Under the pieces are notes generated by a model. It worked only from the letters and a program-made list of their open reading frames with translations, was not told the DNA's origin and did no database searches. A DNA stretch of 64,000 nt from Ascaphus truei (Eukaryota > Chordata > Amphibia > Anura > Ascaphidae). The stretch spans positions 295,816,204 to 295,880,203 of the forward strand of contig CM071567.1 in NCBI GenBank assembly GCA_036426205.1, given 5' to 3'. This document shows positions 37,270 to 64,000 of this stretch, one piece after another (positions within the stretch are counted from its first letter, which is position 1; the number at the start of each line of letters is the position of its first letter). Position numbers and translations under genes: made by a program.

Positions 37270-37620
37270 AACATAGGGCCTCATGCAGTAAGCGCCGATA
37301 AGGCTTATATCTGCATTTTCCCGCCAAAATTGGATTTGAGATTCAGTAAGCGCCCGATAAGTGCTCAAAATCTGCATTTTTTCTTCCCGATAAAAATTTA
37401 TCGGCATGCGGCTGCCGATAACCCATTTATCGGCACTTATCGGCACTTTTTGAAACCGGCTGTATTCTAGTAGCCCCGATCAGCTTATCGGTGCTGATCG
37501 GCACTCAAAAATGGAGATTTCATCGGCAATTGGTACCGCCAACTAAAGTTGGCAAGTTGGAAGGGAGAAGGATCGGCAAGGTTGCCGGGACGGCACTTAG
37601 AAAAAATAGCTCATCTCTAC
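37270..37620. mobile_element. DNA-transposon end with GATAA/TTATCGGC repeats
   Basis: Begins GGGCCTCATGCAGTAAGCGC, a Harbinger-style terminus, followed by dense, mutually inverted CCGATAA and TTATCGGC motifs (about ten in 240 bp). A matching inverted terminus was not found on the right. It may be the end of the element whose deleted interior lies at 38.5-40.5 kb, but I cannot connect them. Confidence 0.4.
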
Positions 37621-38511
37621 ATCAATGGAGTCAATGGAGAGGGGACTTATAACATTATAGGAGTGTTTACGTTCTATTGCTCATAATAAAAATGTGCTTG
37701 GCATTACAGTGTCGATGTCAATCACTTCATCGTGTCAACGCTTACGTTTATTATTGGCACAACATTGTACTTTTCAATGTTATGATTATTTGCGTGTCAC
37801 ATTAGTCTTAATGTTATGATGTGTCAAGGGAAACTCCTATAGTAAACTCTTAAAGGAACAGGTCACATAAAATGAAACATGTTACTTAAGTGTGCTTCAA
37901 TTTATTATATGATGTAACAGATTTCACACATCTAACAGATCCAGCGTATAGTACTGTTGGTATACATTAGAGAATGCTTTGAATGTGTAACGCATGATCA
38001 AATGTAAATGTAGCTGTTTGTTTTCATGTTTACATGTACTTTGTGACCTCCCTCTTTTGATGACGTCCGCAATTGGACACTCAATAACATTGTATGTTTA
38101 CATTGTACACGATGCATTAGAATCACTTCATGCTAACTTATACACACATCTATAATAGTTACTCATTTTTACATGATTGAAACATAATCAATAGCAAGTA
38201 TCCTGATGGCATTAAATTATGCATATGCACTTACAATTAGTTCATGTGAACATGTAACAATAACATGCCAAATTAGACATGTTGCAACGTACTTTTTCAA
38301 CGTCAATGTCAAGGTTGTATCCTAATGAGATGACTGAGTGTTGCGTTCAGAAGTGGTACCTGCATTACACATTCCATAAATACTTGCGAATAAATTCTTG
38401 TACAAAGCTTAACGTTACATCATTGTCAAATATCATGATTGCCTAGTGAACACACATAAATAATCATTTTAATTTGTACTGGATACCCGTTTGGAGTTAA
38501 CTACTTGGATA
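37621..38511. other. AT-rich sequence without recognised gene
   Basis: T-rich, ACATT- and GTCAA-rich DNA with no ORF over 60 codons. It resembles the non-coding DNA flanking the HARBI1 gene in texture only. Confidence 0.35.
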
Positions 38512-38765
38512 TGTTAATGTACTGCTGCGACACACTTTATTCGAGCAAATACCCAGTATGTACCTGGCAGATACCTGGAATGCGCCGCTCCTCCCCTCTG
38601 ACAAGCCCCGTTGCATTTGCCTTCCCAGCCTGGGTTCATGCCTGGCTGACGGGCGGCTGATCTGTTAAATGATAATGATTAGGATTTAATAGGCTGAAAT
38701 GCTTCGCGTGTCTACCAGATGGCATAAATTCATGAATTGTAATGCAGTATATATATATGTACTGT

Positions 38766-39116
38766 GCAGTATTGCAGCCAGCGGGAATAAAATGCTTCAA
38801 TCCCTGGCTGGAAAATAACTCAATGCACTCGGGCAGAAAACAGTCACAAACCTCAATACACCCGGGTATACCCGAATTCGTGGGACTAGCCGAGCTCGAA
38901 TAAAGTGTGTCGCCAGTGTAACACCTTGCACTTCATCAAGTCACCTGACATCATCACATAGGTACAGTGGCGACCAACTTTATTCGAAGTTGGCTAGTTC
39001 CGCGAATTTCGGAATATCCCGGTGATGTGCGGTACAGTAACGTTTTCTCCCGGAGTTTATTGCGTTATTTCGCGCCTGTGATTTAAGCATTTTATTCCCG
39101 CTGGCTGCAATACTGC
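38766..39116. mobile_element. 351-bp palindromic element with 32-bp perfect arms
   Basis: 38,766-38,797 (GCAGTATTGCAGCCAGCGGG...) and 39,085-39,116 are exact reverse complements over 32 bp. Pairing continues imperfectly towards the centre: GACTAGCCGAGCTCGAATAA against TTCGAAGTTGGCTAGTT, then GTGTCGCCA against TGGCGACCA. The whole insert could fold into one hairpin. It lies where the forkhead ORF would be expected. Confidence 0.85.
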
Positions 39117-39340: not shown

Positions 39341-39446
39341 GTGAGTACTGTCTTGTTGCCGTATTATTTTGGTGGGGCTGGCTGGGTACTTCTTTAAGGG
39401 GCTTACCATTACTGTACATTAAAACGTATCTTTTTTTTTCCCTCAG
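39341..39446 (+). other. Retained intron-like segment (106 bp)
   Basis: ATG^GTGAGTACTG ... TTTCCCTCAG^AAAAG matches, base for base over most of its length, the putative terminal intron of the forkhead gene (60,886-60,992, other strand), although the preceding coding exon is gone here. Confidence 0.6.
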
Positions 39447-41297: not shown

Positions 41298-41298
41298 A

Positions 41299-44800: not shown

Positions 44801-47800
44801 CAGGAAAGAAAAGACATAGCTTACCACAGATGGGCGGTTCCCGCGTTCCCGGGACACGCGTGGGCATGCGAAAAAGTCTTGCAACTTGCAGTACTGCTAG
44901 ATGTTGGCCAGGATTGGCCCAACGGAAAACACTCCCCCCCGAGTGGGGAGTTTGGACGCGGAAAGCTGGGACCGCGCCCTCATGGACTATGACTCACTCC
45001 GCACCTGTGCTGGGTCAGCATACAAAGTCTACGAGACATCCCCTAGTTTAAACCAGGGGGAGAGTGGTTGGGTCTTCCCCGGATGTCGCAAGAGGAAAAA
45101 TGGGAGGAAGGGGGATATATCAAGCCCATGCCTGTCAGTTGCGAAGAGCCATGATCAGTACCGACTCAGAGCAGCGTACCTCCGCTGATAAAATGGTGAC
45201 TGAAGCTGTGCTAAAGTGGACCAAGGTCCTGTGATTTCACGCACCTTATTTGCTCAGTGTGGGGTGTTCTGGTGAGCGGGTGGATGAGTGTGTTTAGAAT
45301 GAGAGGACTGGGCGTGTCTGTGCTGCAGTGCAGACTCGGGCGGAAGCGTGGGCAGCGAAGCCGATGCCCCCACTGGGACATGCATTACATGTGGCTCATG
45401 GACAACCTTCGTACTGTACATTACGGGATGACCGGAAATGTACAAGTCGTGGCGATAGAAGAGAACAGCCGCAGCTATCGGAACAAGAGTGCCAGTCCGC
45501 AGCGTCGGAGCAAACATTGGTGCTTACGATAGAGAAATCAGCCATCGAGAGGTGATCACGAGGAGCCCATAGCCGGTCTCTCCTAATGGGATGCTCGGCC
45601 AAAAACTGCAAAACTGGAATCCGCGGATGAGGAGTGTGCAGCTGGGGGTAAGGACAGTCTATCAGACGGGGACTGTCATACCATTGGTAAGCCATAGGAG
45701 GGAATTGAAATTCCTGGGTGTGGAGACGCGATCGAATGTTTTCTCCGTACCGCGACCACCGGATCGCCGGAGTCCCAACTGCGTGGTGATAGGGGATCGG
45801 ACGGAAGGCAGATCTACACCTACCTTCTAGACGGGATAAGAACGGTGTCTGTCGCAAGCCCAGGAGGTGAAAGATCCACGGAGCGAGTCCAAGCGACAGA
45901 CTGGATCGCGTGGCAGAATGGCGTGTGGAGGAGATCCTGTGGAGGAAGAGATTCGCTTGGGGGAATCCACCGCAAGATGGCGTCGCACAGTGCGTGGGCG
46001 GAAGTGGTGCCGGAGGACACGGAGGCCCCGGGTGGGGATGTGCCGACTCTGCGGTCGAGCGGCGGGGAAGCGATTCCCCTATACAAGGGAAATGGGCGGT
46101 ATGAACGGGAAAGCCCAGGATCCCAAGGTTTGAAGACAAAGATGAGACTTTGTGCGCGATGCTAAGGCACGGTACCGGGGAGCAGGTCGAAACCCTGGTC
46201 CGTGCCATCTGGTCGGTCCGTCCCCCAAAAAACCCGTCCACACCCAAGGTTAGGTCATAAGGCCCTAGCTAAAGCCCTTGTACCCGTCCCTATCTCTTTG
46301 TGATCTTAGTTCCATTTAGGGTTGTCGGGGTCACGGGTGTCACTTTTGATGATCGGACTGGGAGCCTGGACTGGGTACGTCGGATGTGGGTCGGAGGGAG
46401 GAGGGAGATGTCCCGACAAGTGTGGTGTCGAGTGATTGTCCTAGCGGGATGAGTATTACGTTAGGAATACCTCCACGTAAGGAGTTAAGTACCAGATCTG
46501 AGGGTACATCTGGGGTGTTTCCTGGTGGGCCTGAGAGGAGTCACTGGAGGAAAAAGCAGATTCTAGCTCCGAGGAAGAAGGGAGACTAGGTGGTGGGCCC
46601 CCATTATACGAGGGGTATGCCTCATGGTTTGACCGCACCCGCTTTATTAGCGAGGGAGGGGGTGGTTGATCAATGGTGGGCTGCCGGGGATTTTGATGAG
46701 AATCCTACCTTAGGGCTTAGGTTACGATGGACGACTATACAGGCAGGCCTAATTATTCCTAAGGGGTCCAGGGTTAGAGATCCGGTGGAGACACATGAGC
46801 CCCTATCATGGGTGTACCCGGGACGGCTGGTACGAACCAGTTTAACTAGGGTTGCAGAGCTGAGCGAGCTATCCTGCCAAGTACAGGAAGTCCCATGGGC
46901 TTGATTACCCCTATGTCCTGAACCTTAATGACAGAGATAGAGGAGAATAGGAGAGAGGTGCTCAAGACTGTATTCCGTACTATTCATTGAGGAGAGGGGG
47001 AGCCATAAGGGATACAGCCGGCAGAGGGTAGCTCACATGCGGGTTGGAAGATAGGGCGCAGTGTATATAAGCACAAGGTGAGTACGTAATGAGAGAGGAG
47101 TACCACGGAAGTACAGCGGGACTGTGCATGATGCCGCGGGGCGAGAGTGGTGAAGAAGCCGATCCTCGGCATTACTATTGAGTGTCCAATAGAGTGGTTT
47201 GTTGTTCTTTGCGCTCCCTGCTGGTAAGTGAGTGTACGAGCGTTCATTATTAGTGCATGTAATGATGTTGCGTGTGTTATTTGTGTGTTCTTTTGCAGTG
47301 TTTCTGGCGCAAGGTACACCAAATTTAGGTCCCAGCCGGGACGGTGGGATTCACCAGGGGGAGGATGTAGCCATGCCTAATAATGACGCATACATCTTCT
47401 CTGGTAGCAGTAAGTCCTGGTACCACACAGGCCTGCCCACAGTAGTAATGGAGGTTTCCCTCCACCCCCAAGTGTGGGGCCCTGTGTAAGGATGGGTGAG
47501 TGGCTGTATGCTCGAGCACCCTGGATTGACCTCAGGATGCGCCTGCCCCCTGGAGTATAAAGGCACAGCACTGACAGTTAGTGTTGTGGTTCGAGGGAGA
47601 GAGTAACTGACGATCCGTTATTGAAGGAAAACTTTTGACCTAGTGAGTAACTAGCGGGGGAACATAGTGATAAGTCCAGTGGTTTGACGCCCGCTGTGTC
47701 CAGGGACTGGCCAGTGGTGATCCCCTAGGATGAAAAGGGAATCCCACTCTGATTGGAGGGCGTACCTGGCAAAGGGATCATCACGCAGAGATGTGCGGCT

Positions 47801-50800
47801 AGAGCTGTGCAGCTGCATTGGGGCGTCTGCTAAATCCCTGTATTCAATAAAGATGTCCTGAAAAAAGAACCCCAACTGTGTGAGTGTGAGATTACTCAAC
47901 AGTGGATGGCACCAAGAAGGAGTTCCTCACCCGGACCATCTCCCTGCGGAAGCACAGATCCTGATGAGGTGGAGGCGCTGCACATGATGTAAGTTGGACT
48001 CGTACCCACTACCTCAGATACCTGTCTGATTGGACATCCCCAATAACACCAAGCGGGGATCCAGAGTCCTGTACTTGCAGGTGCACCACCAACACACGCC
48101 TTGTAATGGGGGACGGTGTAGACTACAAGGCCAATGAGAGAGGGTGGGTCAGGGGACCGGAGGGAGCACCGTGTACATATATAATGTATAACCCTGTCCA
48201 CTAGTGTAACTTTGTAATTGTAACCATGTATTTGTGATCAATAACTATGCCCAGGAAATACTTGTAAACGAGAGTAACTCTCAATGTATTGCTTGACCGG
48301 GAGGCTGGACAGGGATCCCCCTTCCTTCTGTAGCCAGTACCCACATAAACACATACCAAATAACGACAGACTTTGCTTTGCCGGAGGTATAAAAGGCCGC
48401 GGCTTGGTGTATTAATGCGACCCCGGTCCTCCCCCGGGTCCCCCTCTTACCTCTTACCTTCCATTTCGCTGGCCTGGCAGTGGAGGATGGGGAGGGTGCG
48501 GGGAGGGTTGCGGGCAGTTCTGGTGGGTGATGGAGTCGCCGGAGGTTCCCGGTGGAATCTCTGTTGCAGTGTGTGCTGCCATGTTGAAGATGTGGGCGCA
48601 TGTGCAGTACCGTTTCGCGATGCGCACGAGTAGTCATAGCTGCGGCCAATACCAGAGGTGCTAGACAGGAACTACAACCACCAGCATGTGGTGCACCAGG
48701 AGCCATATTTGGATCAGGGACAAGGTTAGGGTAGGTGGTATGTGCAGTGTGTCTGTGGCACTTGCATTAGGCCAGAGACCCCCCTATCAGGCCCCAGTTG
48801 GCCGACTCCCTCAGATGTGGGGCTGCTGCAGGGACAGGCCATGAAGATAGGGACACTGCACTGTAGCATAAGAGTGAGGGGCACCAGCAGATGCAATTGC
48901 ATCCTGCCTACTGTAGTCTGGGACCAGACCAGCTGCTACCCTCCGAGACTCTCTTCAGTGTGAAACCCTCTCAGACGGATAGCACCCAAGCAGAGGTGGA
49001 CTCTGCGCTGACCCAACCATTACTGGATTAATGGATTGTCATCTGCTGTGGCATACGGGGTGGGTATCACCCGGAGTACCTAATTTCATCAAGTGCACCA
49101 AGTTTACGCACATTTAGTGAGGTAGCGCTGTTCTTACATTTGGGTTGACTCTGTGGGCACCAGCATGGTGGGTGGCCAGGGGCATCTCCGTACTTGGGGT
49201 TAACCCCAGGGTGTGGCCATGGGGTTGGGGTGGACACGGTGAAAGGGGTATGCCTGCAAGCGCTGAGTGGTTTGGTCATATGCATTATCTCCTATGGTAG
49301 TAAATCAGTTATATTATAACGGTGTGTATTATTGTATGTCCTTCACGAGTTATCCAACAGTGTTTAGGATCCCACGCAGGTGGACGGCAGGTGTCAACCA
49401 ACGAATCAGCTACACCCCAGGCTCACAGCAGCGGGGGTTAGGCCTCCTAGAGCCAGGTAACACGGCCACTCAACCGTAGCTGCCAATCTCCCGGGGGTGG
49501 GGGAAAGTGCGCAAAATTTAAATAATATTGAGTAAATGCAGTTCGTGCCAGAATGCTTGCTGCTTAATAGGTTAAGTTAGGGTCAGACGGGCCCTGACCA
49601 CTGCCCCCATAAACTGTAGCCATGACATGTGAGTGGCCGTTGTCGCGTCCAGCAGACCCAGTCCACTCGCCACCAACCCAGGCTTTATTAGCTCCGAGCC
49701 CCACCTGGCAAAGACAAGCATACCCCCCAACTGCCGCACATGACGGGCCTATTTAACTCCCTTTAAACTAGGCCCGTAACGCCAGACACACGAAGACCCT
49801 CTCCATCCCTCCTGTAACTATTGTTAACAGAGCCAATATCTGACCAGTGTACGCCTCGATCAAAAGAAGCGCACCACTGCCAGGTCGTTTCCCGCACGTG
49901 GAATGATAGGATGTAAGTGCTCTCTATCTCAGGCTAAGGATATAGCCATGGAGGCAATTGCCCCCACCGCGCGGCTTACACCCCACCATAATACCTTTGC
50001 CTGCTCTGCGGGCAACCTAAGAGTTCTCCCAGGGTGTGAGGCGCTCGTTTCTTGCCCAGTGTACAGTGACTCCCTGATGATCCATACATCGTCGGAACCA
50101 AGTCAGTTTTGAATGGGACTGCAGAGACCCACGCTGTGTTAATCGATGGGCCATTAAGAATCTCACAGAAATGTTGAGGCAATGTTGAGTCATGTTGAGG
50201 CATTACTGTGAGACTGCCCCAGAATTTCCAGGTTAACTGTTCTATACTGGTGGCTGCCATTGTAGCGCAAAGCCATTGAACGTCAAGAGGTTATCTTCTG
50301 CTTCCCATAGGCACTCAGAGGTGCGAACCCTGAGTAGCCGTTTTGGGCTCGCAACAAGCGGTTAAAACGTCTGGCGACGTATATGGTCAAGGCTTCAAGG
50401 ACAGCAGTGGGAATTGCACAGGAGACTCACTATTCCCAATGAAAATGTGTGTGCTAGGTAAAAGGAGAGGAAACAACATCCAGACGCCGCTGTGGGTAGC
50501 AGTGTGAGAAGACAACGAGTATACATCAGACGCTCTTCAGACAATCGATGTGACAAGGATGGACAAATGCCACGTGATGACGTCTGCGACATACGAGGAC
50601 ACACGTACAGAGACCCACTACACACTACAGGACAACAGCAGATGCAGCAGAGAATGAAACCGAAACCACGCCAGCACCAGATGGGATTGTGATGGAGCCA
50701 GTGATGACACCAGAGAGGAACAGCAACCAATGCAGAGATGGGTATACGCCCACCCATGGGCTCTAACAGGTGGATTGAACACAGAGAACCTGTTAGATGA

Positions 50801-53800
50801 TAGTAACAAAGCAATTGCACTGGGTGTTGAAGTTTGAGACGATTAAATATTGTTTGGCTGTTCACTTCCATTGCCACTTCAAGGTGAGAAAGGTTCAGCA
50901 GGGAAGAATGTTGTGTATCTCATTGCACAATAACTGCTTTATGATTAAAAACAACTCGTGTTTGTGCCCTTGTCCTCATAGTTTTGGATCATTGGAAGAA
51001 CAGAGGTCTTCCCTGGGGGTTTAAGGAGAACAGGTTATATGTTAATCACTTACTTTTCAACTGTTGTTTTTGTGTTTGCAGCAAACATCTACATATTTGC
51101 AGTGACTGTGTGGGAAAAAGGAACATACCTGAGGTTCCCTGGGGATATTTAAATAACTTGTTAGAGATAAGCCTGAGTTGGACACAAAATTAGTATGACT
51201 TATAACGCTATTTCTGGCTAATTTTAGGGAGTTTGTGAATATGGGATGATATGCTTTAGCAAAAATACAATAATTTGATATAGTTGAGAATAACAGCCTT
51301 TATTCATAACGTTATGCATTTGTCAGGATAAATACTTTTAACATCACATAATTTGCTTTGATTAAAACTATGTCATGATGGGGATTAATTACTTAGAGTA
51401 CACATTAAATAGGCTAGCAGAGAATAGAACATCTGGGGCTCGGATCTAAAAACAAAGAATATAATAAACATTTTACAAACATAGGGCCCTATGCAGTAAG
51501 CGCCGATAAGGCATATCGCATTTTCCCGCCAAAATTGGATTTGAGATTCAGTAAGCGCCCGATAAGTGCTCAAAATCTGCATTTTTCTTCCCGATAAAAA
51601 TTTACGGCATGCGCGGCCCGATAACCCATTTATCGCACTTATCGGCACTTTTTTGAAACCGGCTGTATTCTAGTAGCCCCGATCAGCTTATCGGTGCTGA
51701 TCGGCACTCAAAAATGGAGATTCATCGGCAATTGGTACCGCCAACTAAAGTGGCAAGTTGGAAGGAGAAGGATCGGCAAGGGTTGCCGGGACGGCACTTA
51801 GAAAAAATAGCTATCTCTACAATCAATGGAGTCAATGGAGAGGGGACTTATAACATTATAGGAGTGTTGAGTTTCTATTGCTCATAATAAAAATGTGCTT
51901 GGCATTACGTGTCGATGTCAATCATTCATCGTGTCAACGCTTACGTTTTATTGGCACAACATTGTACTTTTCAATGTTATGTTATTGGTGTCCATTAGTC
52001 TTAATGTATGATGTGTCAAGGGAAACTCCTATAGGAAACTCTTAAAGGAACAGGTCACATAAAATGAAAACATGACTTAAGTGTGCTTCGCAATTTATTA
52101 TATGATGGTAACAAGGATTTCACCACATCTAACAGTATCCCGCGTATAGTACTGTTGGATACATCTAGAGATGCCTCTTGAATGTTAGCATGATCAAATG
52201 TAAAGTAGCTGTTTGTTTCAGTACGTACTTTGTGACCCCCTCTTGTTGATGACGTCCGCAATGGACACTCATACATTGTATGATTACATTGTACACACGA
52301 TGCATTAGAATCACTTCATGCTAACTTATACACAATCTATAATAGTTACTCATTTTTACATTGATGAAACATAATGCAATAGCAAGTATCCTGATGGAAT
52401 TAAAATTTGCATATTACTTATACAATTAGTTCATGTGAACTGTAACAATACATGCCAATTGGGGTACATGTTGCAAGTACTTTTTCAACGTCAATGTCAA
52501 GGTGTATCCTAATGAGATGACTGAGTGTTGCGTCGAAGGGTACCTTGCATTAACACATTCCATTAAATACTTGCGAATAAATTTTGTACAAGCTTAACGG
52601 TACATCATTGGTCAAATATCATGATTGCCTAGTGAAACACACATAAATAACCGTTTAATTTGTTCTGGATACCGCGTGGCGTTAACTACTTGGATATGTT
52701 AATGTACTGCACCGACACAATTTATTCGAGCAAATACCCGGTATGTACCTGGCAGAACCTGGAATGCGCCGCTCCTCCCCTCGGACAAGCCCCGTTGCAT
52801 TTGCCTTCCCAGCCGGGTTCATGCCTGGCTGACGGGCGGCTGATCTGTTAAATGATAATGATTGGATTTAATAGGCTGAAATGCTTCGCGGGTCTACCAG
52901 TGGCATAAATTCATGAATTGTAATGCAGTATATATATATGTACTGTGCAGTATTGCAGCCAGCGGAATAAAATGCTTCCAATCCCTGGCTGGAAAATAAA
53001 TCATGCACTCGGGCAGGAAAACAGGTCAACAAACCTCAATACACCCGGGTATCCCGAATTCGTGGGACTAGCCGAGCTGAATAAAGTGTGTCGCCAGTGT
53101 GTAACACCTTGACTTCATCAAGTCACCTGACATCATCACATAGGTACAGTGGCGACCAACTTTATTCGAAGTTGGCTAGTCCGGAATTTGGAATATCCGG
53201 TGATGTGCGGTACAGAACGTTTCTCCCGGTAGTTTATTGCGTTATGTCGCGCCTGTGATTTAAGATTTTATTCCGTGGCTGCAAACTGCAATGCCGTGTA
53301 AAAATGCATGGGGGCGTTTGCGAGCTGTGTCTCTGAAGTCCAAATACCTTCGCTGTCAACCTACAGTACAGTGATTCAGTCTGTGGCAGTCGCGCGTCGC
53401 AGTACAGTAAAATGCATATTTAATTCATTTTAAAGTACAGTACTGTACATGCTCGGACCCTGTTGGGGTGAAGTGAGGGGTTCCTAAAATCTGGGGAAGA
53501 ATGAAATTTTAATTCTATGGTGAAGTACTGTCTTGTTGCCGTTATTATTTTGGTGGGGGTGGCTGGGTACTTCTTTAGGGGGCTTACCATTACTGTACAT
53601 TAAAACGTATCTTGTTTTTTCCCTCAAGAAAAGAAAACGGTAAGGGGGGGATTTCGATGGATAATATTGTACTGTATGCTGAATGTTTCCGGCCGTACAG
53701 TATACTGGTAATAAACCCGAATAAATAAAACTATGCAGTTCATTCTACATGTTCAGTTCGTTTCATTATTGTCTTGTACATGTACTGTACAGTGGCATAC

Positions 53801-55160
53801 ACGTGCCTAAAATCTGGGGCAAAAATAATTTATTCCTAGGTGCCTTAGAACAAGAAGTTCCCACGCAGTTGCCCGTGATCTTGACCGCGGCCCTAAGTAG
53901 TTCCCACGCCAATTGGTGAATATAATGTAAAATAACCCATTCTGTGGGTCTGAGCGGGTTGAAATTTACCGGTCCTCATCGCGGAGGACCCTTGCCATAG
54001 TGGCAAATATCAGCCTTGCACGACCCCCGAAACCAGAGGTACAAAAAGACAGTTAAAAGCACATACCAAAGTGGCTTTTTTTCTGCAGCAGTCAATGGCA
54101 GAAACCTAAATTTAACATCGCACTTAACTCGTTCTGTTGCCACGAGAGGGTCGCAATTTGCCATGCAATCGCCGCAACTAGGACTACATGGTCACGACGA
54201 TCTGAGCCCTCTAGGTGCGAACAGAACCGGAGTTGTGGGTTCCAGGTTAGCTCATTCTGACTTAGCCGGTTCAAGCTTTCTCCGCCATTGCGCTTCAATG
54301 GTAGGACCCTCCTCGCCGGTGTGATCCTTTTCGCCGCCATTAGCTCGGACCCTGTTGGGGTCAGTGAGGGGGTTCCTAACATCTAGGGGCAAATTGCCAC
54401 GGACCAGGGCAGTAAAAAAAAACAGTACAGCAAGCCTGTACATTTGTTACACTGGCAAAGGAGCAAATGGAAACAATGTGAGGCAATTCAAACATGTCTT
54501 TTATGGTGGAGTCAGTACAAAAACATTTATTTACAAATACGTAAATGTTGAAACATTAAAGTGCACAGCAATTCTAACACATCAACACACAAATACATAC
54601 TGCAGCCTTTATTGATTTTCTGCACAAAACATTTTTGTGCATGGGCACAGGGAGTAAAGTGACTTGCCATTTTATGTCTGTATTTGGGGGTTGTCTTTGG
54701 GGGTTTATTCATCAAATTATTATGATGAACTTGCCTTTTGAAATGACACTGCTGTAACTATTTCAGCCACACACCTCCAGAGTTTTTAATCCCTCCCTAG
54801 CCAAGCGTCAATCGGCTGAGTCACCCTAGCCTACCATCCCCCTCTCTCACTGGTCGTTGATCTTCTGTATTCCACATGTGTTCTTAATCCGCCATAGCCG
54901 AGCTACAAACACTCAGCACGCCTTTGTCTAATCACAACATCCCCCTCCCCAACCATTAGAGGCCTGTGTTTGAACGGTAATGCTTTTCGAAAATCCCTCT
55001 CGAATTTGAAATGTAAACGATGTGCACAGCACTGTAGAATGAGAGTACACTGGACAGTATTTCATCAGGGTTTGTGAAATATTTGTCAGTCACTATGGTT
55101 TACAGTCACATGTTTTTAATACAATACAGTACATTCTTTAAATCTTTAAATAAAAATATA
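41860..55160 (+). repeat. Noisy second copy of 27,739-41,020 (13.3 kb)
   Basis: From AGGCACCTGGTGTG onward the sequence follows 27,739-41,020 in the same order and orientation, including the CpG block, LTR element, NRF-1-like sites, TATA block, palindrome and deleted transposon copy. Differences are overwhelmingly single-base insertions and deletions scattered evenly, with few clean substitutions. That is the error profile of unpolished long reads rather than of evolutionary divergence. All ORFs in it are broken relative to the first copy. Either a real tandem duplication was assembled poorly or a gap was filled with raw sequence of the same locus. Confidence 0.9.
43033..48177 (+). mobile_element. 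LTR element within the noisy copy
   Basis: Counterpart of 28,891-33,910. LTRs at about 43,033-43,876 and 47,366-48,177, with primer-binding-site-like TTGGAGGGCTGGCTGAGATT just after the left one. Indels throughout; boundaries are approximate. Confidence 0.75.
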
Positions 55161-55164
55161 TAAA

Positions 55165-56030
55165 CTCTGGTAAAATATTTTAAATAAAAAAAAATAATTC
55201 ATGGTGCATGTAGGGGTGGGTCAATAATTATGTTCGCAGGAAAGTGAATATAAATTTATTTTATTTTATCAGGAACCAAAAAATACAAATATAAAAATAA
55301 TTCAGGAATAATACATACTGTACAGTAATGCAGTCTTTTTAAGTTATTTGGCAGCTTGAAACTGGATAACCATTGGAAAAACCTTGTAAAACATGGGGGA
55401 AACATGAGTAATGCAATTTATAGAATATTATTTAATACTACAGTATACAGTATACAGTACAGTACTGTAATGTAATGTACTGTATAATATACCGTATATA
55501 CTGTATAGTAAAATTATTTTTTTTAGTCTTATCTTTTCCTCATTCTGTCTGCAGTACAGTAGTCATTGAGAGAGGAGAGGTTTTGTGTTACATCATTGCT
55601 GGCGTTTATATACTGTAAATTTGACTGATACAAGCAGATTTGACTGGACACAACGCCCCCATCCCCCTAGGCCACACCGTTTTTCCTGGACGACAAGAAA
55701 AACAAAAATTAGTGCAGTGTACTGTACGTATTATGGCAGAAATACTGTAGGTCGGCTGGTGCAGCTTTATCGGAAAGAAAAAAAATGGGGGCAGTTAGTA
55801 GGCAGTTACTGTAGTATGTCAAACTAGTGTACTGTGTATACTGTACTGGAACTACTGTATACTCTGACTACTGTTAAATTCTATGTACTGTAACCTGATG
55901 GTGCTGCTCTCTTTGTAAAGAAAAAACTAACTACTGTATACTCTTAATATCTGGGGAAAGAAAAAATTGTGCCATACTTACTGTAACATACTCTGTACTT
56001 ACAATAACACAGCACAGTACTATTTTCCTG
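55165..56030. other. AT-rich, TACTGTA/TACAGTA-dense sequence
   Basis: Many overlapping TACTGTA and TACAGTA heptamers (for example 55,440-55,500 and 55,820-55,900). No supported gene; the 80-codon ORF at 55,585-55,827 shows no motif. Confidence 0.5.
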
Positions 56031-57149
56031 ATGCTTGCCCATTACACGCAATGACAATGGGCAACACACAGTGGCAATATGGTCTATATTTATTGCAGCG
56101 TTCCACGGTGAGTACATCGTCCTAAAATCAGTATGCCTTTCAACAACTCGTACTTTTTGGAGGGTTTCACCACTTTCCGGATATGGTCCTCAGCTGATTG
56201 CCAGACCATTTCGATCGGATGAAGTCTGGCGACCTGTCTTGGAAGAAAAGGAACAATGTTTAAGATCTAAAAACAATGGGGAACAAAATGGGACACGGTC
56301 TACTGCACTTACTCCGCTGGGTCTTCACCCAGTGATGCCGCGCTCAAGGATAGCGCCGTTGATGCAGTTTGCTTGGGATCGTTGTCCTGGTAGAAGCGGT
56401 GACATGGGAAGTCGCGTGTGATGTATTGCACTATCTCGGGCACAATGTTGTCTGGAAGAAAGCATTATTCAGATTCCTATAGCAAGAAAGAAAAGTGCTC
56501 AAAAAACTGCACAATAGTACAGTACAGTGCATTACGGGTAAGGCAACACTAGTCAAGTAAGGGAATAGGTGACATTATATTGATAAATTTTACCTTCAAA
56601 GATGACAATGCATCCGGCCACGCCTAGAGATGGCACCCCACACATGCAGCTTCACAGGGTGTTTTGGCTGTGGCTTCAAAGATAAGCGGCTTTTTTGTGG
56701 AATGCAAAGTTTGAAAATCTCTCCAGCCGACACAAGTAGACTCATCAGTGAAGATGCTGCAATCTGGAAAGTCTCCCCACTGTCGATCCTGCCTGGGCCT
56801 GGGACACTCTTTTGATTTGTTTTGCGTCCTGTATCATGGGGTACGCTCTGTAATGACAAGGAAAAAAATTTTTTAGCGGCACAGTGCAGTACAGTTTGCT
56901 AACAACACTTTACCTCTGTACTGTCCAGTACTAACTCACACCGTCAATTTCCATCCAATGCTGCGTCTCATCTTCTTTATGCTGGTCTCGGATACAGTCA
57001 GATTGTGTTTTCCTGCAGAGTGTTTTAAACCCTTAATGCACTCCTTCATCATTCTCTCACTTATTTTGTCCACCAGAACAGTTGTCTCCCTACAATTGTA
57101 AAGAATTATATTGTTTTATAATATGCAGCAATATAAAATGTATGTATTA

Positions 57150-57535
57150 AATACAAATAGATATACTGGGGTAAATAAATATAAATATAAGTACATTCTA
57201 TACAGTATATACCGTTGTAAGATTAATTGAAATATACAAAAAATGTATACTGTGTACTATAAATATAAATAGACAAAATATATACTGTTGTGCTATAAAT
57301 ATTAATTTGCACAAATAAAAATACTGTTGTAATATAAATATAAATACAGTACATCCGATACAGTATATACCGTTGTAAGATTAATTGAAATATNNNNNNN
57401 NNNNNNNNNNNNNNNNNNNNNNNNNNNNNNNNNNNNNNNNNNNNNNNNNNNNNNATATACAAAAAATGTATACTGCTGTACTATAAATATAAATAGACAA
57501 ACTACTGTATGTTGTAATATAAATCAACAGAAATA
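57150..57535. repeat. 160-bp tandem array (second locus), gapped
   Basis: At least two further units of the array found at 41,299-41,858, ending in the same CTACTGTATGTTGTAATAT flank. It is interrupted by the assembly gap, so copy number is unknown. Confidence 0.88.
57394..57454. other. Assembly gap (61 N)
   Basis: Run of N inside the tandem array. Confidence 1.
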
Positions 57536-57845
57536 ACAACAGTATTACAGTAGATACAGAACTGTACTGTAGATGTACAGTACAGTTTTCTATATTTTTT
57601 TTTGTTAAGTTTTATAAATATACTTACGCGTTTGTTACCCTTGGTGCCTTTTTCCGGTCTCTGTTTTGTCCGTGTGCATGGTAGCTCAAGGTGTTTAATG
57701 GCACAACGAGGCCAGAAGTAGCTAACCAGCATTGGATAGCAGCAATTCGGTGTCCGCTTGTGTACATCTCCTTAATTCGCATGCTGAGCTCCTTTGAAAT
57801 CTTTTTAACAGGCATTGCTGCGAGTAGAAAGAAATACAAACACAA

Positions 57846-58050
57846 GAATGTATATTCGATGTTTAGTCGATGTGTATTCTATGTGCAGTCAATACACAAA
57901 ATGGATGGTGTATTTATACGGTAATGACTCACACGCCCACTTTCAACATCTGTACCTGGCCGCCATGCATAAAAGGTCACACACTTTGCATAGGCCACCA
58001 CTCCATGATCTTTATCTGAACTTGCCCTTGTCCAGATACTGTACTGCATT
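57846..58050. promoter_or_regulatory. Divergent spacer, mariner-like gene / BEN gene
   Basis: About 205 bp separate the ATG of the Tc1/mariner-like gene (minus) from the first plausible ATG of the BEN gene (plus), so both must be served by a shared bidirectional promoter if transcribed. No clear TATA box is seen. Confidence 0.35.
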
Positions 58051-58065
58051 GTGCCACCTGCTTCC

Positions 58066-58660
58066 ATGGAGCATCCCCGGTTCTATGGACGCAAGAACCC
58101 TCTCACCTCTGCCGTGCCTGTCATGCTGAAAAAGCGAAAGGCAGGAGCTGTTTCCACGCCAAGGGCAAAGCGACAGGCTAAGGCCAATAAAGAAAACCTT
58201 CTGCTGACCCCAAAGGTTAAGGGTTTTCTTAGACGTAAGCCTCATTATGGGAAGAAGATATACGGTGATGTACTTTCGACGCAGAACAAATGGCAGCCAA
58301 CCCATTAGACCCGCAGACCACTTCCTCCCATATGCTTCGACGACTCTATGTGTAGCTGTCCCGGAAATCTTCATCCCATCTTCTCCACCCCCATCTTCTC
58401 CGGTTCCATCTGACGATGGGTCACTGTCTCCTTTGCGCTTAGACGACTCTGCTTCTCGCCCGGAAATCCAAAGGTCACCTTCTCCATCCCTCTTTGACGT
58501 GCTGCCGCTTCTCCTCTACCGGGTATCCACAGGTCACCTCCTCCACTCTCCATCGATGCCGCTTCTCTCCATGGAACCCCCATCTCATCCTCCGTTGCAC
58601 ACATCCCCCCTGATGTCCATACGCCATGCACAAGAAGCAGCTCATTGGACCGGATGCTGA
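58066..58660 (+). pseudogene. Upstream part of the BEN gene, frame-broken
   Basis: Starting at ATG 58,066 (MEHPRFYGRKNPLTS) the first frame gives a basic stretch, KRKAGAVSTPRAKRQAKANK, that looks like a nuclear localisation signal. It runs to a stop at 58,306-58,308. A second frame (58,247-58,660) gives a Ser/Pro-rich linker (PSSPPPSSPVPSDDGSLSPL). Near 58,500 the coding-like reading returns to the frame that leads into the BEN ORF. These look like one N-terminal region broken by frameshifts, or exons whose junctions I cannot place. Confidence 0.45.
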
Positions 58661-59442
58661 ATGGGATAAGTGTGGATCTCCCCGGGAATTCTATTGTGCT
58701 GGCAAAGATAGATCTGCTTCTGGAGACCATGTTAAATTTGGAGCAATGGATGCTACAAATGGAGCAACGGATGGATCAACGGATGGAGAAGATAGAGGCT
58801 GACATTGCGGGCATACATTATTTGCTCGATGCTATTGCCCCTGTTTCCCCGACGCCAGAGCATGAGGGTGACATGGATGGGATGAATGGGACCTTCGACC
58901 CCCTTCCATCACCAAGCACCCCCCCTCCACCAGAAGATGTAGTGTACATGTATGCTGTTGAGGAGGACATGACAACCCCGTCAAGACCACGCCAGGAGAC
59001 AACACGGCGACCACGACCGGAGGAAAGCTTCCTCCCAGACATTCTACCATCGCCCGTCGCCACAAGCACACCCGCTCCCAAAAGACCTACACCCGCTCGC
59101 ATCGAAACAGTGCCCGACATCACCCTGTGCGATCTGCCACCGGGGCTCAGGGAGAAGTATAGGGTGATGAGTGCTGGTGCACCCCACAAGTATGCCTTGA
59201 TCATTTTTAAGCACCATGTTCCCTACACGTTGTACTGCAAGTGGGTTTTCAAAGTGAACTATGAAGGAAATCGCGTTAAAAAGGCCCTTCCTGCCAATTT
59301 AAGGAAAAACATTGTGGAAGAAATGCGGCGCTTTTATAAAGTTACAGATCCTGTAATGAAAGGCATTAGAGACTGCATTAATGGCGTTTTGCGCCATGCA
59401 AGGAATCGGCCATGGCTGGACAATGTGGAGGACTGTCAGTGA
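58645..59442 (+). CDS. BEN-domain protein with coiled coil
   Basis: An open frame of 265 codons. Residues 24-60 form a Met/Glu/Gln-rich coiled coil (LEQWMLQMEQRMDQRMEKIE). An acidic and Pro/Thr-rich linker follows (about 65-155), including basic RPRQETTRRPRPEE. The C-terminal ~80 residues fit a BEN domain (a DNA- and protein-binding helical fold of chromatin and viral proteins): PHKYALIIFKHHVPYTLYCKW, then KKALPANLRKNIVEEM and IRDCINGVLRHARNRPWL. The frame is open at its 5' side beyond the ATG, so this start is probably internal. AATAAA at 59,714 and later follow. It lies head to head with a transposase gene and tail to tail with the forkhead gene, suggesting an accessory protein of a transposon. 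The BEN call is by eye, on pattern. Confidence 0.6.
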   Translation: MDRMLNGISVDLPGNSIVLAKIDLLLETMLNLEQWMLQMEQRMDQRMEKIEADIAGIHYLLDAIAPVSPTPEHEGDMDGMNGTFDPLPSPSTPPPPEDVVYMYAVEEDMTTPSRPRQETTRRPRPEESFLPDILPSPVATSTPAPKRPTPARIETVPDITLCDLPPGLREKYRVMSAGAPHKYALIIFKHHVPYTLYCKWVFKVNYEGNRVKKALPANLRKNIVEEMRRFYKVTDPVMKGIRDCINGVLRHARNRPWLDNVEDCQ

Positions 59443-59734
59443 AACCATACTGTTGTGCTTAACTGTATTGTACTGTACATGTTTTGCCCTACAGTACCTG
59501 CTGTACTTAAACAAAGGAGATGTTGTTGTGTGTTTTTTTTCACAGGACATGCACAACTCCAGTCCCTGAGGGCCGCAAACAGGCATGATTTTCAACGTTT
59601 ACCTGAAAACCTGCCCTGTTTGCTGCTCTCTAGGACTGAACTGGTGCAGGTCTGACTGACAGTGTTGCACACCATCCCACTGTACTGTACTGTATACAGT
59701 ACTGGGTTTCTTTAATAAAGGAGATGTTACTTAA
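59443..59734 (+). other. BEN 3' UTR, proximal part
   Basis: Non-coding sequence with TACTGTA-type motifs and an AATAAA at about 59,714, absent from the deleted copy at 38.5-40.5 kb. Confidence 0.4.
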
Positions 59735-60885
59735 AATGTCACTTTAACTCCGTTTGCCCCATGCACCAAAAATGTTTTGTGGCAGAAGAATTTAATAAAG
59801 GCTGCAGAATGTATTATTGTGTGTTGATGGTTAGAATTGCTGTGAACTTTAAATGTTTCAACATTGTACAATATTTGTAAATAAATGTTTTTGTACTGAC
59901 TCCACCAATAAAAGAACATGTTGAATTGCCTCACATTGTTTCCATTTGCTCCTTTGCCAGTGTAACAAATGTACAGGCTTGCTGCACTGTTTTTTTACTG
60001 CCTGGTCGCGCAATTGGCGTAGGAACTACGGCAATTGGCGTGGGAACTAGGTCAATTGGCGTGGGAACTTCTGTTCTAGGGCGCCTAGAAATAAAATTAA
60101 TTTTGCCCCTAGATGTTAGGAACCCCCTCACTTGACCCCAACAGGGTCCGAGCAGTAATGGCGGCGAGAAAGGATCACGCCGGCGAGGAGGGTCCTACCA
60201 TTAAGCATAATGGCGGAGAAAGCTTTGAACCGGCTAAGTCAGAATGAGCAGAAACCTGGAACCCACAACTCCGGTTCTGTTCGACCTAGAGGGCTCAGAT
60301 TCGGTGACCATGTAGTCCTAGTTGCGGCAGGATTGCATGGCAAATTGCGACCCTCTCGTGGCAACAGAACGAAGTTAGTGCGATGTTAAATTTCAGGTTT
60401 CTGCCATTGACTTGCATGGCAGAAAAAAAGCCACTTTGGTAATGTGCTTTTAAACTGTCTTTTTGTACCTCCGGTTTCGGTGGTCTTGGAAGGCTGATAT
60501 TTTGCCACTATGGCAAGGGTCCTCCCGCATGATGACCAGGTAAATTTCAACCCGCTTAGACCCACAGAACGGGTTATTTTACATTATATTCGCGCAATTG
60601 GCGTGGGAACTACTTAGGGTCGCGGTCAAGTTCACGGGCAATTGGCGTGGGAACTTCTGTTCTAGGCACCTAGGAATAAAATTATTTTTGCCCCCAGATG
60701 TTAGGCACTGTATACCACTGTACAGTACACTGTAGTTGACAAATAATGAAACGATACTGAACATGTAGAATAAATGCATAGTTTTATTTATTCGGGTTTA
60801 TTACACAGTATACTGTACGGCCGGAAAACATCAGCATACAGTACAATATTATCCATCGAAATCCCCCCATTAGCCGTATTCTTTT
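59735..60885. repeat. Shared 3' region between BEN and forkhead genes
   Basis: Inverted match to 39,447-40,505. It carries AATAAA signals on the plus strand (about 59,792, 59,880, 59,908) that could serve BEN. It also holds two direct copies (60,033-60,122 and 60,620-60,712) of a block with CAATTGGCGTGGGAACTTCT and GCCCC(C/T)AGATGTTAGG. Three 21-bp tandem CAATTGGCGTRGGAACT units lie at 60,012-60,074. The ~500 bp between the two copies contains GTCCTACCATT and GTTTCTGCCATTGACTTGCA and is conserved at both loci. Confidence 0.7.
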
Positions 60886-60992
60886 CTGAGAAAAAACAAA
60901 AAGAAAAGTTTTAATGTACAGTAATGGTCAGCCCCCTAAAGAAGTACCCAGCCAGCCCCACCAAAATAATACGGCAACAAGACAGTACTCAC
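60886..60992 (-). other. Putative terminal intron of the forkhead gene
   Basis: Begins GTGAGTACTGTC and ends TTTTTTCTCAG on the minus strand, 107 nt. Conserved at the deleted copy (39,341-39,446). Splicing would change the ending only from ...IQW to ...IQ, so it acts after the coding region. Confidence 0.5.
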
Positions 60993-61618
60993 CATTGAAT
61001 TTCCCATTCAGCTTGCGCCAGCGCCGGTCCACTGTCAGTCCAGCTTTCTTCATCATCCACGTCGATAGTTGGCAGCGGGACTAGTCCACCTGTAGTCAGC
61101 AGGTGAGGCTGGAAATCGCTTAGGTACATGCAAGCATCATCAAAACTGCATGCCAAATCCAGCTCAGCCTCGGGCTCAGGGTTGTCACTGACAGTGGGAC
61201 CGTCATTGGAAGCCGGTGCTGGTGCTGGTGCTGGTGCATTGCTTGGCAGCGACTGTCGCTTCTTAGTTGGTTTTAACACGACACTTTGCCTTTTGCCGCC
61301 TCCATGATCATAGATACGGGAAAAATCCGGTGACACATACCAATACCCTCCAACGAATTGGGGCTCAATACGGGGAAAACAGGTGTCACTACATAATCTT
61401 TTCCTTACTGCACGCTTCCACGTATGAGGAGTTGGCGAAAATTTGTAAATGTCATAGTTTTCGATAAAATACTGATAAATTTGAGCAACTGTTGCCATCT
61501 TATCCTCTGTTGCATTAATCGCGGCCCATATCAAATACGCGTAACTTCTGTCAGGTTTTTGGAAAGCAGGCTGCACTTGAACACTCATGGTGGGTCTCTG
61601 CAGAATAGTGTAACACAA
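60989..61618 (-). CDS. Forkhead (winged-helix) domain protein
   Basis: An intact 209-codon ORF. Residues 21-99 align with a forkhead domain: KPDRSYAYLIWAAI (helix 1), ATVAQIYQYFIENY (helix 2), HTWKRAVRKRLCSDTCFPRI (helix 3 and following), GGYWYVSPDF (wing 1). The canonical recognition helix WQNSIRHNLS reads WKRAVRKRLC, so the usual Asn and His base contacts are Arg and Lys. After the domain come a basic KPTKKRQS, an (AP)n linker and an acidic tail (DVDDEESWTD) resembling an activation region. An inner ATG (codon 11, MSVQVQ) is a likely start. GTGAGT at the end of the ORF may be a splice donor (acceptor CTCAG at 60,886), but reading stops within a codon either way. Head to head with HARBI1, it stands where Harbinger elements carry a Myb-like partner. 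Confidence 0.72.
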   Translation of the reverse strand: MCYTILQRPTMSVQVQPAFQKPDRSYAYLIWAAINATEDKMATVAQIYQYFIENYDIYKFSPTPHTWKRAVRKRLCSDTCFPRIEPQFVGGYWYVSPDFSRIYDHGGGKRQSVVLKPTKKRQSLPSNAPAPAPAPASNDGPTVSDNPEPEAELDLACSFDDACMYLSDFQPHLLTTGGLVPLPTIDVDDEESWTDSGPALAQAEWEIQW

Positions 61619-62024
61619 ACTGAAACTGGTCTTTGTCTTTCTTTAATATGAAAAGCCTAAATTGATACATTTTTGCAACCTCTTCCTTCAGTCTCAAGGC
61701 CAAGGCCAAGATACAATAGCACACTGTGGTACGGTATCTTTTTTAAACAAAACACCTGCAAGCCGACACATTACTGATTCGGCGCATTACAATTCATGAA
61801 TTTCTGCCATCTGGCGGAAACGCGAAGCATTGCAGCCTATTAAAATTTGAACCATTATCAATAAACACATCAATCGCGCGTCAGCCGGGCATGACCCTGG
61901 CTGGGAGCCCGGCATGCTCCGGGTGAACAGCGTGGCATTCCAGGAACATGCCAGGTACAAGCCGGTGATTACTTCGAATAAAAGCTGCCGCTGCTGTATT
62001 TAAAGGAGGCCAATTACCTGCGCA
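61619..62024. promoter_or_regulatory. Bidirectional spacer, forkhead / HARBI1
   Basis: The 406-bp gap between two divergent ORFs. TGTATTTAAAGG (61,995-62,006) would serve as a TATA box for HARBI1. The part at 61,740-61,995 is conserved, inverted, at 38,512-38,760 and includes TGAATTTCTGCCATCTGGC and GTACCTGGCA-like palindromic phrases (GGAACATGCCAGGTAC). Conservation in a copy without ORFs fits cis-acting DNA. Confidence 0.5.
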
Positions 62025-63379
62025 TTGACAGCTAAAGACCTGAAAATGATGCGAATGTTTATGAGACGGAGAAAGATTCTATTGGAGGAGAGGCTTGCTG
62101 ATGGAGAGGATGTCACAGGCCAAGGAAGGGACAGAGACAGGGACAGGGACAGGGACAGGGACGCAGAGAGGAGAAGGAGAGGTCGAGGGAGAGGGAGAAG
62201 GAAAGGAGATGAGAGGAGAAGAGAGAGGAGAGAAGTTGTGCCTCGTCCTCGTTTGTACAGGGAGAGAACCATGTTAGATGGGATGAGTGAGGAGGAGATT
62301 ATAAGTCGCTATCGTTTGAGTTCATCAGCAATCTTAGCTCTTTATGAAGAGATACAGGGAGATTTAGATTTTGTAACAGCCAGAGGCCGTGCAGTCCCTG
62401 GGCTTGTTAAAATGCTGTGCTCATTACATTATCTTGCTTCCGCGTCATTCCAGACAACTATGGGCATAGTGGGCGGGGTCTCGCAATCTACATTCTCGCG
62501 GGCCTTTACCCAGTTTCTCTGTGCACTGAAAGACGCGCTAGGAATTATATTCATTTTCCTACAGAGCACACAGAGTGGCTGGAAGTGAGGAATGGCTTTT
62601 ATACCATAGCCGGGATACCATGTGTGATGGGTGCAATATGGGTGCAATAGATTGCACCCATGTTGCTTTGATCCCGCCTAGTCAGAGTGAGCATGCTTAC
62701 CGCAACCATAAGCGCTACCATTCCCTGGATGTACAGGTGGTATGCGATGCCACAATGAAGATTATGCATGTGGTAGCCAAATTCCCTGGTTCCAGTCACG
62801 ATTCCTCTATCATGAGAAACTCATCAGTCTTCCATGCTTTCGAAGAAGGCTATTTTGGACCTGGTTGGCTGGTGGGTGAGTACATATTATGATGTGTTAA
62901 CAAACAACTCTAGTTTTTCTATGAACTGTTGAATGTAATAATGTTAACACAAATTGTATCATATTTGTGCACGATGGATTATAGGTGACTCAGGATATGG
63001 AATTAGGCCGTGGCTGTTGACCCCGGTGGCAAACCCTCAATGTGAAGCAGAGGAGAGGTATAACGTGGCACATATATCTACACGATCCGTCATAGAGAGA
63101 ACATTTGGGCTTCTCAAGACACGATTTAGGTGTTTAGATATAACTGGTGGGGCACTTCAATATAAGCCTGCTAAAGTGTCAGATATTATAATTGCATGTT
63201 GCATTTTGCACAATCTGGCACTCTGCCATAATTTAGAAACCGACATATGTCAGGCCTTGGAGGAGGAGCATCCCGTACATTTACCAGCTGACACTGAGCA
63301 AACAGCCAGTGGTGTGGAGACACGTCGGAATGTCATAAACACCTATTTTTCATGTAAGCAAATACATATATGTTCATAG
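62025..63379 (+). pseudogene. HARBI1-type Harbinger transposase
   Basis: A PIF/Harbinger DDE nuclease gene in two exons (62,025-62,875; 62,985-63,379) with intron GTGAGT...TTATAG. The N-terminus has a hexanucleotide-encoded Asp-Arg run (62,130-62,165) and Arg-rich stretch. Then come the HARBI1 helical region (MSEEEIISRYRLSSSAILAL, MLCSLHYLASASFQ, VSQSTFSRAFTQF) and the nuclease: GAIDCTHV (first Asp, 62,650), GDSGY (second Asp, 62,987, split codon before it) and VIERTFGLLKTRFRCL (Glu, 63,095). All three catalytic residues are present. Two frame breaks make it inactive: one near 62,538 and one from an exact 11-bp tandem duplication (62,627-62,648) directly before the first Asp. Length and order fit the family. 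Confidence 0.85.
62876..62984 (+). other. HARBI1 intron (109 bp)
   Basis: GTGAGTACAT...GGATTATAG. Joining the exons recreates an uninterrupted GWLVGDSGYG across a split Gly codon, strong support for real splicing. Confidence 0.8.
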
Positions 63380-64000
63380 TACTACATAGATGTATTAATT
63401 CATTGTAATGATAAATACATGTGTCCAAATACCATTCACTTAGGAAACAGATGAATATGGTTCTCACACCTTTCTCTTCTCTGCTGTGTGGACAATTGCA
63501 TGTGGCACCGGTATGTCATTCATCAACAGGTTGTATTATACTTCTTACCACTAAAAGGTGTTGTGTGTACATGAGGAAATAATGTGTACTAAATCTATAT
63601 TTTCTGTACATGCTATTTTTGGTTATGCATACACAATAAACCTACTATTTCGATAGCCAATAGCTAGTGCAGTATGGTTACATACAATTTTTCTTTTGGA
63701 GTGTGACATGTGTGTCACAATGATGTGTAGACTATTGTGTATTTAAGATCATATTTGACGTATTATAGATAATGTTTCATATCATATACAAAATTGTCAC
63801 TTCTGTGTGTTGCTTACCTTAATGAACATGTCATGACAATGATTTATATTCATTCATGTTTTCTTTTTCAAGGTATATCACTCCAAGGACTGCTCATGGT
63901 ATGTATTTGAATTCATATCTGTCATAAGATGTGCTAACCTCGATACAGGTATAGTTACAGGAAGTATAAACATAACGTAATGAAAAAGATGTGACAATTG
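63380..64000. other. Downstream non-coding sequence
   Basis: AT-rich with AATAAA at about 63,636. No terminal inverted repeat of the Harbinger element is seen before the window ends, so the element probably continues beyond it. Confidence 0.45.

What the first reader, a model, noticed from the sequence alone, without database searches (positions are those of the whole stretch)
60989..63379. Forkhead-domain protein in the place of the Harbinger Myb-like partner
Seen: an intact forkhead-domain ORF (60,989-61,618, minus) lies head to head, 406 bp away, with a HARBI1-type transposase (62,025-63,379, plus). Known: PIF/Harbinger elements encode a DDE nuclease plus a Myb/SANT-type DNA-binding protein needed for nuclear import and end recognition, often divergently arranged. 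Inference: in this lineage a captured forkhead domain may have taken over that role. The forkhead ORF is still open although the transposase is broken, and its flanks recur at a deleted copy.
Basis: partly seen in the sequence, partly recalled or inferred. Interest (0 to 1): 0.88.

Follow-up and report, generated by a model that had tools for sequence, protein, structure and literature searches.

The report
Frog jumping genes carrying forkhead proteins
In what appears to be the tailed frog genome, two unrelated families of cut-and-paste jumping genes each carry a small gene for a forkhead protein, a kind of DNA-binding gene switch; the neighbouring pair that was flagged is one jumping gene that landed inside the other.

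Summary
Both ORFs are real but belong to two transposons. The forkhead ORF (FH1) lies in an ~8.9-kb Tc1/mariner-type element (TA duplications, DDE_3-like transposase, an unknown 477-aa ORF) that inserted inside a PIF/Harbinger element, 26 bp before the HARBI1-type ORF; 3 of 4 other Harbinger copies show the uninterrupted site. Homology of 20 other FH1 loci stops at the element end, short of HARBI1, in 20 of 20. Among the 150 best FH1 and 150 best HARBI1 places, only the window pair lies within 40 kb. The proposed unit is refuted.

Following the Harbinger past the window gave a surprise: it carries its own, different forkhead ORF (FH2). Of 150 HARBI1 places, 34 have an FH2 within 10 kb, all 34 downstream and convergent (0.16 expected). 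It also keeps a Myb/SANT partner, so forkhead is added, not substituted. FH1 and FH2 share size, domain position and acidic tail, and are each other's best match by a small margin against five FOX domains. A self-encoded regulator is my best guess; function is untested, and the selection tests were inconclusive.

The parts
60989..61588 (-).
   Evidence: PF00250 57 bits; 150 scored places in the own genome, 104 of them without a stop inside (counted by hand twice)
61971..61998 (+). Right terminal inverted repeat of the FH1 element (ends at 61,996) and its TA target copy (61,997-61,998)
   Evidence: Sharp end followed by TA in the window and in 20 of 20 loci
53145..53172 (+). TA target copy and left terminal inverted repeat of the FH1 element (copy B, contiguous with FH1)
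38963..38990 (+). TA target copy and left terminal inverted repeat of the FH1 element in the better copy A of the duplicated stretch
58498..59439 (+). C-terminal two thirds of the element's second gene (intact 477 aa in L009; frame-broken in the window); no Pfam or PDB match
   Evidence: 93 matches in the genome
56096..57845 (-). Transposase region of the FH1 element in several blocks (N-terminal block 57,624-57,845; DDE block about 56,596-56,859), degraded in the window
   Evidence: PF13358 partial matches on the equivalent pieces of L022 and L027
57145..57537 (.). AT-rich tandem array between transposase blocks (61 N at 57,394-57,454)
60010..60072 (+). Three tandem 21-bp repeats with core CAATTGGCGT(A/G)GGAACT in the right arm (two more at 60,594-60,658)
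   Evidence: 5 in the right arm against 0.0 in shuffles
37276..38521 (+). Left part of the PIF/Harbinger element, with its left terminal repeat (copy A)
   Evidence: 96% identical to L032 and L033
51484..52706 (+). Same Harbinger left part in copy B, 88% with many gaps; probably an unpolished false duplicate
38522..38918 (+). Small non-autonomous relative of the FH1 element, inserted at another TA of the same Harbinger
61999..64000 (+). Right part of the same Harbinger element, running out of the window
   Evidence: 95-96% identical to L032-L035
62025..63379 (+). HARBI1-type transposase of the Harbinger (frame break near 62,540; probable small intron 62,890-62,990)
   Evidence: PF13359; 150 scored places

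Best explanation
Shown: the flagged pair is a nested insertion. A Tc1/mariner-type DNA transposon encoding a DDE transposase, a 477-aa protein of unknown type and a 199-aa forkhead protein (FH1) jumped into a TA inside a PIF/Harbinger transposon, just upstream of its transposase gene. Shown: the Harbinger family encodes, besides its DDE transposase and a Myb/SANT protein, a second forkhead protein (FH2, about 212 aa), placed downstream of and convergent with the transposase. Inferred: in both families the forkhead protein (N-terminal DNA-binding domain, acidic tail of about 100 residues) is a transposon-encoded accessory regulator. It binds sites within the element and activates its genes, or helps assemble the ends; it does not replace the Myb partner. 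Inferred, weaker: FH1 and FH2 descend from one transposon-borne forkhead gene that passed between superfamilies, for which nested insertions like this one give a route.
For: Homology of 20 FH1 loci to the window stops at 61,988-62,007 in 20 of 20; the end is followed by TA in 21 of 21 including the window; left ends were found in 6 of 20 loci, each preceded by TA. The empty site ...CACATAGG-TA-TTTAAAGG... is present in L032, L034 and L035, 3 of 4 Harbinger copies fetched. Only 1 pair (the window) of 150 FH1 x 150 HARBI1 places lies within 40 kb, while 19 of 93 places of the 477-aa ORF and 16 of 150 transposase places lie within 10 kb of an FH1 place (0.1 and 0.16 expected). FH2: PF00250 45 bits, E 9e-12; 34 of 150 HARBI1 places within 10 kb, all 34 opposite strand and downstream, 2.1-7.9 kb, 0.16 expected. 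Myb: PF13873 33 bits; co-occurrence. FH1 and FH2 lie between the terminal repeats of complete copies (L022; L034+L040). Open frames: 104 of 150 FH1 and 109 of 150 FH2 places have no stop inside the match. Tails: 17 acidic/6 basic of 99 and 16 acidic/2 basic of 112 residues.
Against: No function was tested. Selection tests on FH1 are inconclusive: within-genome changes look near neutral (singletons 59 N:35 S, shared 11 N:5 S, neutral expectation 1.9-3.4); between two subfamilies dN/dS is 0.39 (NG86) or 0.63 (YN00), and 0.45/0.86 for the domain alone; the ORF is not the most conserved part of the right arm. Intact frames may only reflect youth, and the copies were ranked by ORF similarity. The common origin of FH1 and FH2 rests on small margins (FH2-FH1 58.5 bits against FH2-FOXG1 57.4), and the FOX pieces were trimmed. 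The residues in recognition helix 3 differ from the usual forkhead ones in FH1 (usual contacts recalled), so ordinary forkhead sites cannot be assumed. Both AlphaFold models had low confidence (mean pLDDT 45).
Confidence: 0.6

Rival explanations
1. One reading: FH1 and HARBI1 form one Harbinger element in which forkhead replaces Myb.
For: Adjacent, divergent, both repetitive in the genome.
Against: Element end with TA between the two ORFs; empty site in 3 of 4 Harbinger copies; no second FH1-HARBI1 pair within 40 kb among 150 x 150 places; Myb partner present.
Confidence: 0.01
2. Passenger capture: both transposon families picked up host forkhead sequence (as Pack-type elements do) and it rides along without a role; the frames are open because the amplification is recent.
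For: Near-neutral variation among FH1 copies; low divergence (mean pairwise dS 0.043).
Against: Two families carry a protein of the same layout; both FH2 and FH1 keep open frames in over two thirds of the top 150 places at 87-97% identity; an FH1 subfamily 24% diverged keeps an open frame through the domain, and Ascaphus gene models of that kind exist; dN/dS below 1 between subfamilies, though weakly.
Confidence: 0.3
3. FH2 is not a Harbinger gene but a third, old nested element that was fixed in the Harbinger master copy.
For: Its own ends were not searched for; the right end of the Harbinger is certain only in one copy and a second, weaker end-like match lies 4.8 kb further on.
Against: 34 of 34 linked pairs have the same orientation and mostly 3-4 kb spacing; FH2 and Myb exons keep one order and strand in 18 of 19 linked pairs. 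A fixed insertion that moves with the element would in any case be one of its genes now.
Confidence: 0.08

Closest known systems
Tc1/mariner superfamily DNA transposons
   Same: TA target copies, terminal inverted repeats, transposase blocks matching DDE_3 with the motifs FTDES, QDNDPKHTA and NPIEMVW
   Different: Members are usually 1.3-2.5 kb with one gene (recalled); this one is about 8.9 kb with long inverted arms, a probably multi-exon transposase and two further genes, one of them forkhead
PIF/Harbinger superfamily
   Same: HARBI1-type DDE_Tnp_4 transposase, Myb/SANT-like second protein, terminal repeats; two element proteins are required for transposition in Ping/Pong (PMC2836001, abstract)
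   Different: A third gene, FH2, encoding a forkhead protein. One passage of a teleost Harbinger survey (PMC9179366) speaks of two ORFs and of the single-ORF Spy elements; 'forkhead' does not occur in that text
Harbinger expansion in the newt Pleurodeles waltl (PMC5741667)
   Same: Amphibian Harbinger expansion with Myb-like gene (passages)
   Different: 'forkhead' does not occur in that paper's main text
FOX transcription factors (FOXA, FOXG, FOXC, FOXL2)
   Same: Forkhead domain, 28-38% identical
   Different: Multicopy, transposon-borne, domain starts about residue 10, two extra residues before helix 3, altered helix 3 in FH1 (WKRAVRKRL for WQNSIRHSL)

Membership tests
Tc1/mariner superfamily (FH1 element) | TA target-site duplication | tested here: met
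   TA at right end in 21 of 21, at left end in 6 of 6 found; empty site with one TA
Tc1/mariner superfamily (FH1 element) | Terminal inverted repeats | tested here: met
   CAGTGGCGACCAACTTTATTCGAAGT / CAGCAGCGGCAGCTTTTATTCGAAGT
Tc1/mariner superfamily (FH1 element) | DDE_3 (IS630-Tc1-mariner) transposase | tested here: met
   PF13358 on two consecutive pieces of L022, profile positions 2-59 (18.1 bits) and 116-145 (26.7 bits), each just under the whole-protein cut-off of 28.6
Tc1/mariner superfamily (FH1 element) | DD(34-39)D/E spacing | tested here: inconclusive
   The three motif blocks lie in separate reading-frame pieces in every copy seen; spacing not read off
PIF/Harbinger | DDE_Tnp_4 / HARBI1-type transposase | tested here: met
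   PF13359 61 and 67 bits
PIF/Harbinger | Myb/SANT-like partner | tested here: met
   PF13873 33 bits, cut-off 21.7, between the termini of L034+L040; co-occurrence 14 of 150
PIF/Harbinger | Terminal inverted repeats | tested here: met
   16-bp exact inverted match of the ends in L034+L040, E 7e-4; left end aligned in 5 copies
PIF/Harbinger | 3-bp TWA target duplication | tested here: inconclusive
   Left flanks read TAA, TTA, TAA, TTA and ATA, but no copy had both ends with matching trinucleotides
Forkhead (FOX) domain proteins | PF00250 above the gathering score | tested here: met
   FH1 57 bits, FH2 45 bits, cut-off 27
Forkhead (FOX) domain proteins | Usual recognition helix with N..RH | tested here: not met
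   FH1 WKRAVRKRL, FH2 FKTSVRFTL against WQNSIRHSL; importance of the residues recalled
BEN domain (477-aa ORF; considered by eye) | PF10523 or structural match | tested here: not met
   No relevant Pfam match at E up to 10 in 8 aligned members, no PDB match, model too poor to judge

The most novel reading that the evidence does not exclude
A forkhead gene became a standard working part of DNA transposons. One captured forkhead gene spread between two unrelated superfamilies (Tc1/mariner-type and PIF/Harbinger) in one frog lineage, with nested insertions as the route, and serves each as its own transcription factor, binding repeats in the element (such as the 21-bp repeats or the AT-rich arrays) to switch on transposition genes in chosen cells.
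Probability: 0.3. Interest if true: 0.88.

Novelty: new variant of a known kind. Interest (0 to 1): 0.7.

Why it matters
Transposons of these superfamilies are thought of as one-gene (Tc1/mariner) or two-gene (Harbinger) machines (recalled; for Harbinger also PMC2836001, abstract). A developmental-type transcription factor carried by both would mean that DNA transposons can acquire regulators and perhaps pass them to each other. It would also scatter large numbers of forkhead ORFs (at least 150 scored places each; 18,109 and 4,505 first-look candidates) and their possible binding sites through a vertebrate genome, ready material for domestication.

Full report
Observation. The forkhead ORF at 60,989-61,618 (minus) and the HARBI1-type pieces at 62,025-63,379 (plus) are there, 406 bp apart. 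From the first plausible ATG (61,588) the forkhead protein, FH1, has 199 residues. The window's own genome (G000, 2.82 Gb) holds at least 150 scored FH1 places out of 18,109 first-look candidates; 104 of the 150 have no stop inside the match. It is not a single host gene. One annotated Ascaphus truei relative lies on a contig of exactly the length of G000:C4, so I take the host to be the tailed frog.

Boundary. I fetched 20 of the best FH1 copies with 10 kb each. Against window 54,001-64,000 their homology stops at 61,988-62,007 in 20 of 20. In all 20 and in the window the end reads ...GCTGC(N)n(A/T)GTA followed by flanks that differ by eye. Left ends lay within the fetched DNA in 6 of 20 loci and each is preceded by TA. 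L022 is complete at about 8.84 kb, the window copy at about 8.85 kb (via copy B); shorter copies of about 3.1-5.1 kb (L013, L016, L018, L019, L021) lack transposase and 477-aa ORF matches but keep FH1, which is expected because they were found by FH1.

What the FH1 element is. Blocks of its transposase match Pfam DDE_3 in two consecutive pieces (profile 2-59 and 116-145) and carry FTDES, QDNDPKHTA and NPIEMVW. With TA target copies and inverted termini this makes it a Tc1/mariner-type element. The same blocks are separated in the same places in several copies, so I suspect introns; I did not find an intact transposase. A second gene of 477 aa is intact in L009 and others and matches nothing in Pfam or the PDB. 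Of its 93 places 19 lie within 10 kb of an FH1 place (18 elements, one counted as two halves; 0.1 expected); of 150 transposase places 16 lie within 10 kb of FH1 and 19 within 10 kb of the 477-aa ORF. Lists are capped at the best-scored places, so these are lower bounds. A 21-bp repeat with core CAATTGGCGT(A/G)GGAACT occurs 1-8 times in each of the 20 loci.

Nested in a Harbinger. HARBI1 has its own 150 scored places (4,731 candidates). Only the window pair of the 150 x 150 FH1-HARBI1 places lies within 40 kb; the next pair is 42.8 kb apart. Four other HARBI1 loci match window 61,996 onwards (L033 only from 62,880) and, to the left, window 37,264-38,521, that is, the DNA on the far side of the FH1 element. 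L032, L034 and L035 show the unbroken site ...GTTAATG-TA-ACACC...CACATAGG-TA-TTTAAAGG.... In the window the first TA holds a 397-bp relative of the element (38,522-38,918) and the second TA holds the FH1 element. L033 has another sequence there and is not informative.

Two copies of the left part. 27,739-41,024 and 41,866-55,164 are 88.9% alike. Against independent Harbinger copies the first has 3 gap openings in 1.26 kb and the second 60-64 in 1.28 kb, so the second is probably an unpolished false duplicate in the assembly.

The second forkhead. Reading on to the right (L031, L036, L039 and L033/L034 with extensions) I found a different forkhead ORF, FH2, on the minus strand about 3 kb after HARBI1 (window-extended 66,132-66,697; L036:464-697 gives PF00250 45 bits, E 9e-12). 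The window's own FH2 has a frame break; L041 and L042 have open copies of 237 and 235 codons stop to stop, 212 residues from the ATG in L041. FH2 has 150 scored places (4,505 candidates), 109 without a stop inside. Of 150 HARBI1 places 34 have an FH2 place within 10 kb; all 34 are downstream on the opposite strand, 2.1-7.9 kb away; 0.16 pairs are expected. In L034+L040, FH2 lies between a left terminal repeat and an inverted right match about 7.9 kb apart; a second, weaker right-end-like match lies 4.8 kb further on, so the right end is not certain.

The Myb partner is not missing. L040:7021-7302 matches Myb_DNA-bind_5 (33 bits), between the same ends. Of 150 HARBI1 places 14 have such a Myb exon within 20 kb, all 14 downstream on the opposite strand (0.3 expected), among them the window's own at C1:295,896,304 (window-extended 80,101). 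Of 19 FH2-Myb pairs 18 share strand and order. Six HARBI1 loci have all three genes. So forkhead is an addition.

How it may work. Both proteins start with the forkhead domain at about residue 10 and end in an acidic tail (17 acidic, 6 basic of 99; 16 and 2 of 112). This is the layout of a DNA-binding activator, and the simplest role is a regulator of the element that encodes it, perhaps through the repeats in its arms or arrays. This is inference. FH1's helix 3 (WKRAVRKRL) departs from the usual WQNSIRHSL, so its sites are unknown. Evidence that the ORFs are under selection is weak: near-neutral changes among copies, mean pairwise dN/dS 0.45 by NG86 without correction for transition bias, 0.39-0.86 between subfamilies by method and stretch, and lower variation in the stretch upstream of the ORF (0.7%) than in the ORF (1.2%), against 2.8% in the right end and 3.8% in the 3' flank.

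Common origin. FH1-FH2 score 58.5 bits by BLASTP; FH1's best of five trimmed FOX domains is 53.5, FH2's is 57.4. They share two extra residues before helix 3 and W-x-V-x-P-x-F in the last strand. I think one transposon-borne ancestor is likelier than two captures, but the margin is small and a full FOX tree was not made.

Novelty. Known Harbinger elements need two proteins (PMC2836001, abstract). Two surveys of vertebrate Harbingers do not contain the word forkhead in the text held (PMC9179366, PMC5741667; passages). My searches listed no report of a forkhead gene in a DNA transposon; that is limited to the open-access library. I call it a new variant of known kinds.

Noticed in passing
41866-55164: Probable false duplicate of 27,739-41,024 in the assembly: 88.9% alike, with 60-64 gap openings per 1.28 kb against independent copies where the other copy has 3.
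   Followed up: partly
38522-38918: 397-bp non-autonomous relative of the FH1 element at a neighbouring TA of the same Harbinger.
   Followed up: partly
58498-59439 and L009:1596-3026: Unknown 477-aa protein encoded by the FH1 element, no Pfam or PDB match, 93 matches in the genome; looked BEN-like by eye only.
   Followed up: partly
57145-57537, 41297-41849: AT-rich tandem arrays between transposase blocks of the FH1 element, with RTAAAYA 3-4 times above shuffles.
   Followed up: partly
L010:537-1445 (oriented 8556-9464): A second FH1-type subfamily about 76-78% identical at the DNA level, close to the annotated Ascaphus protein P0001.
   Followed up: partly
L017, L019, L020: Penelope-like reverse transcriptase and GIY-YIG-like ORFs next to or inside FH1 elements (by eye).
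   Followed up: no
28889-29702, 33093-33910: A repeat of about 830 bp present four times in the window counting the duplicate (81-95% alike).
   Followed up: no
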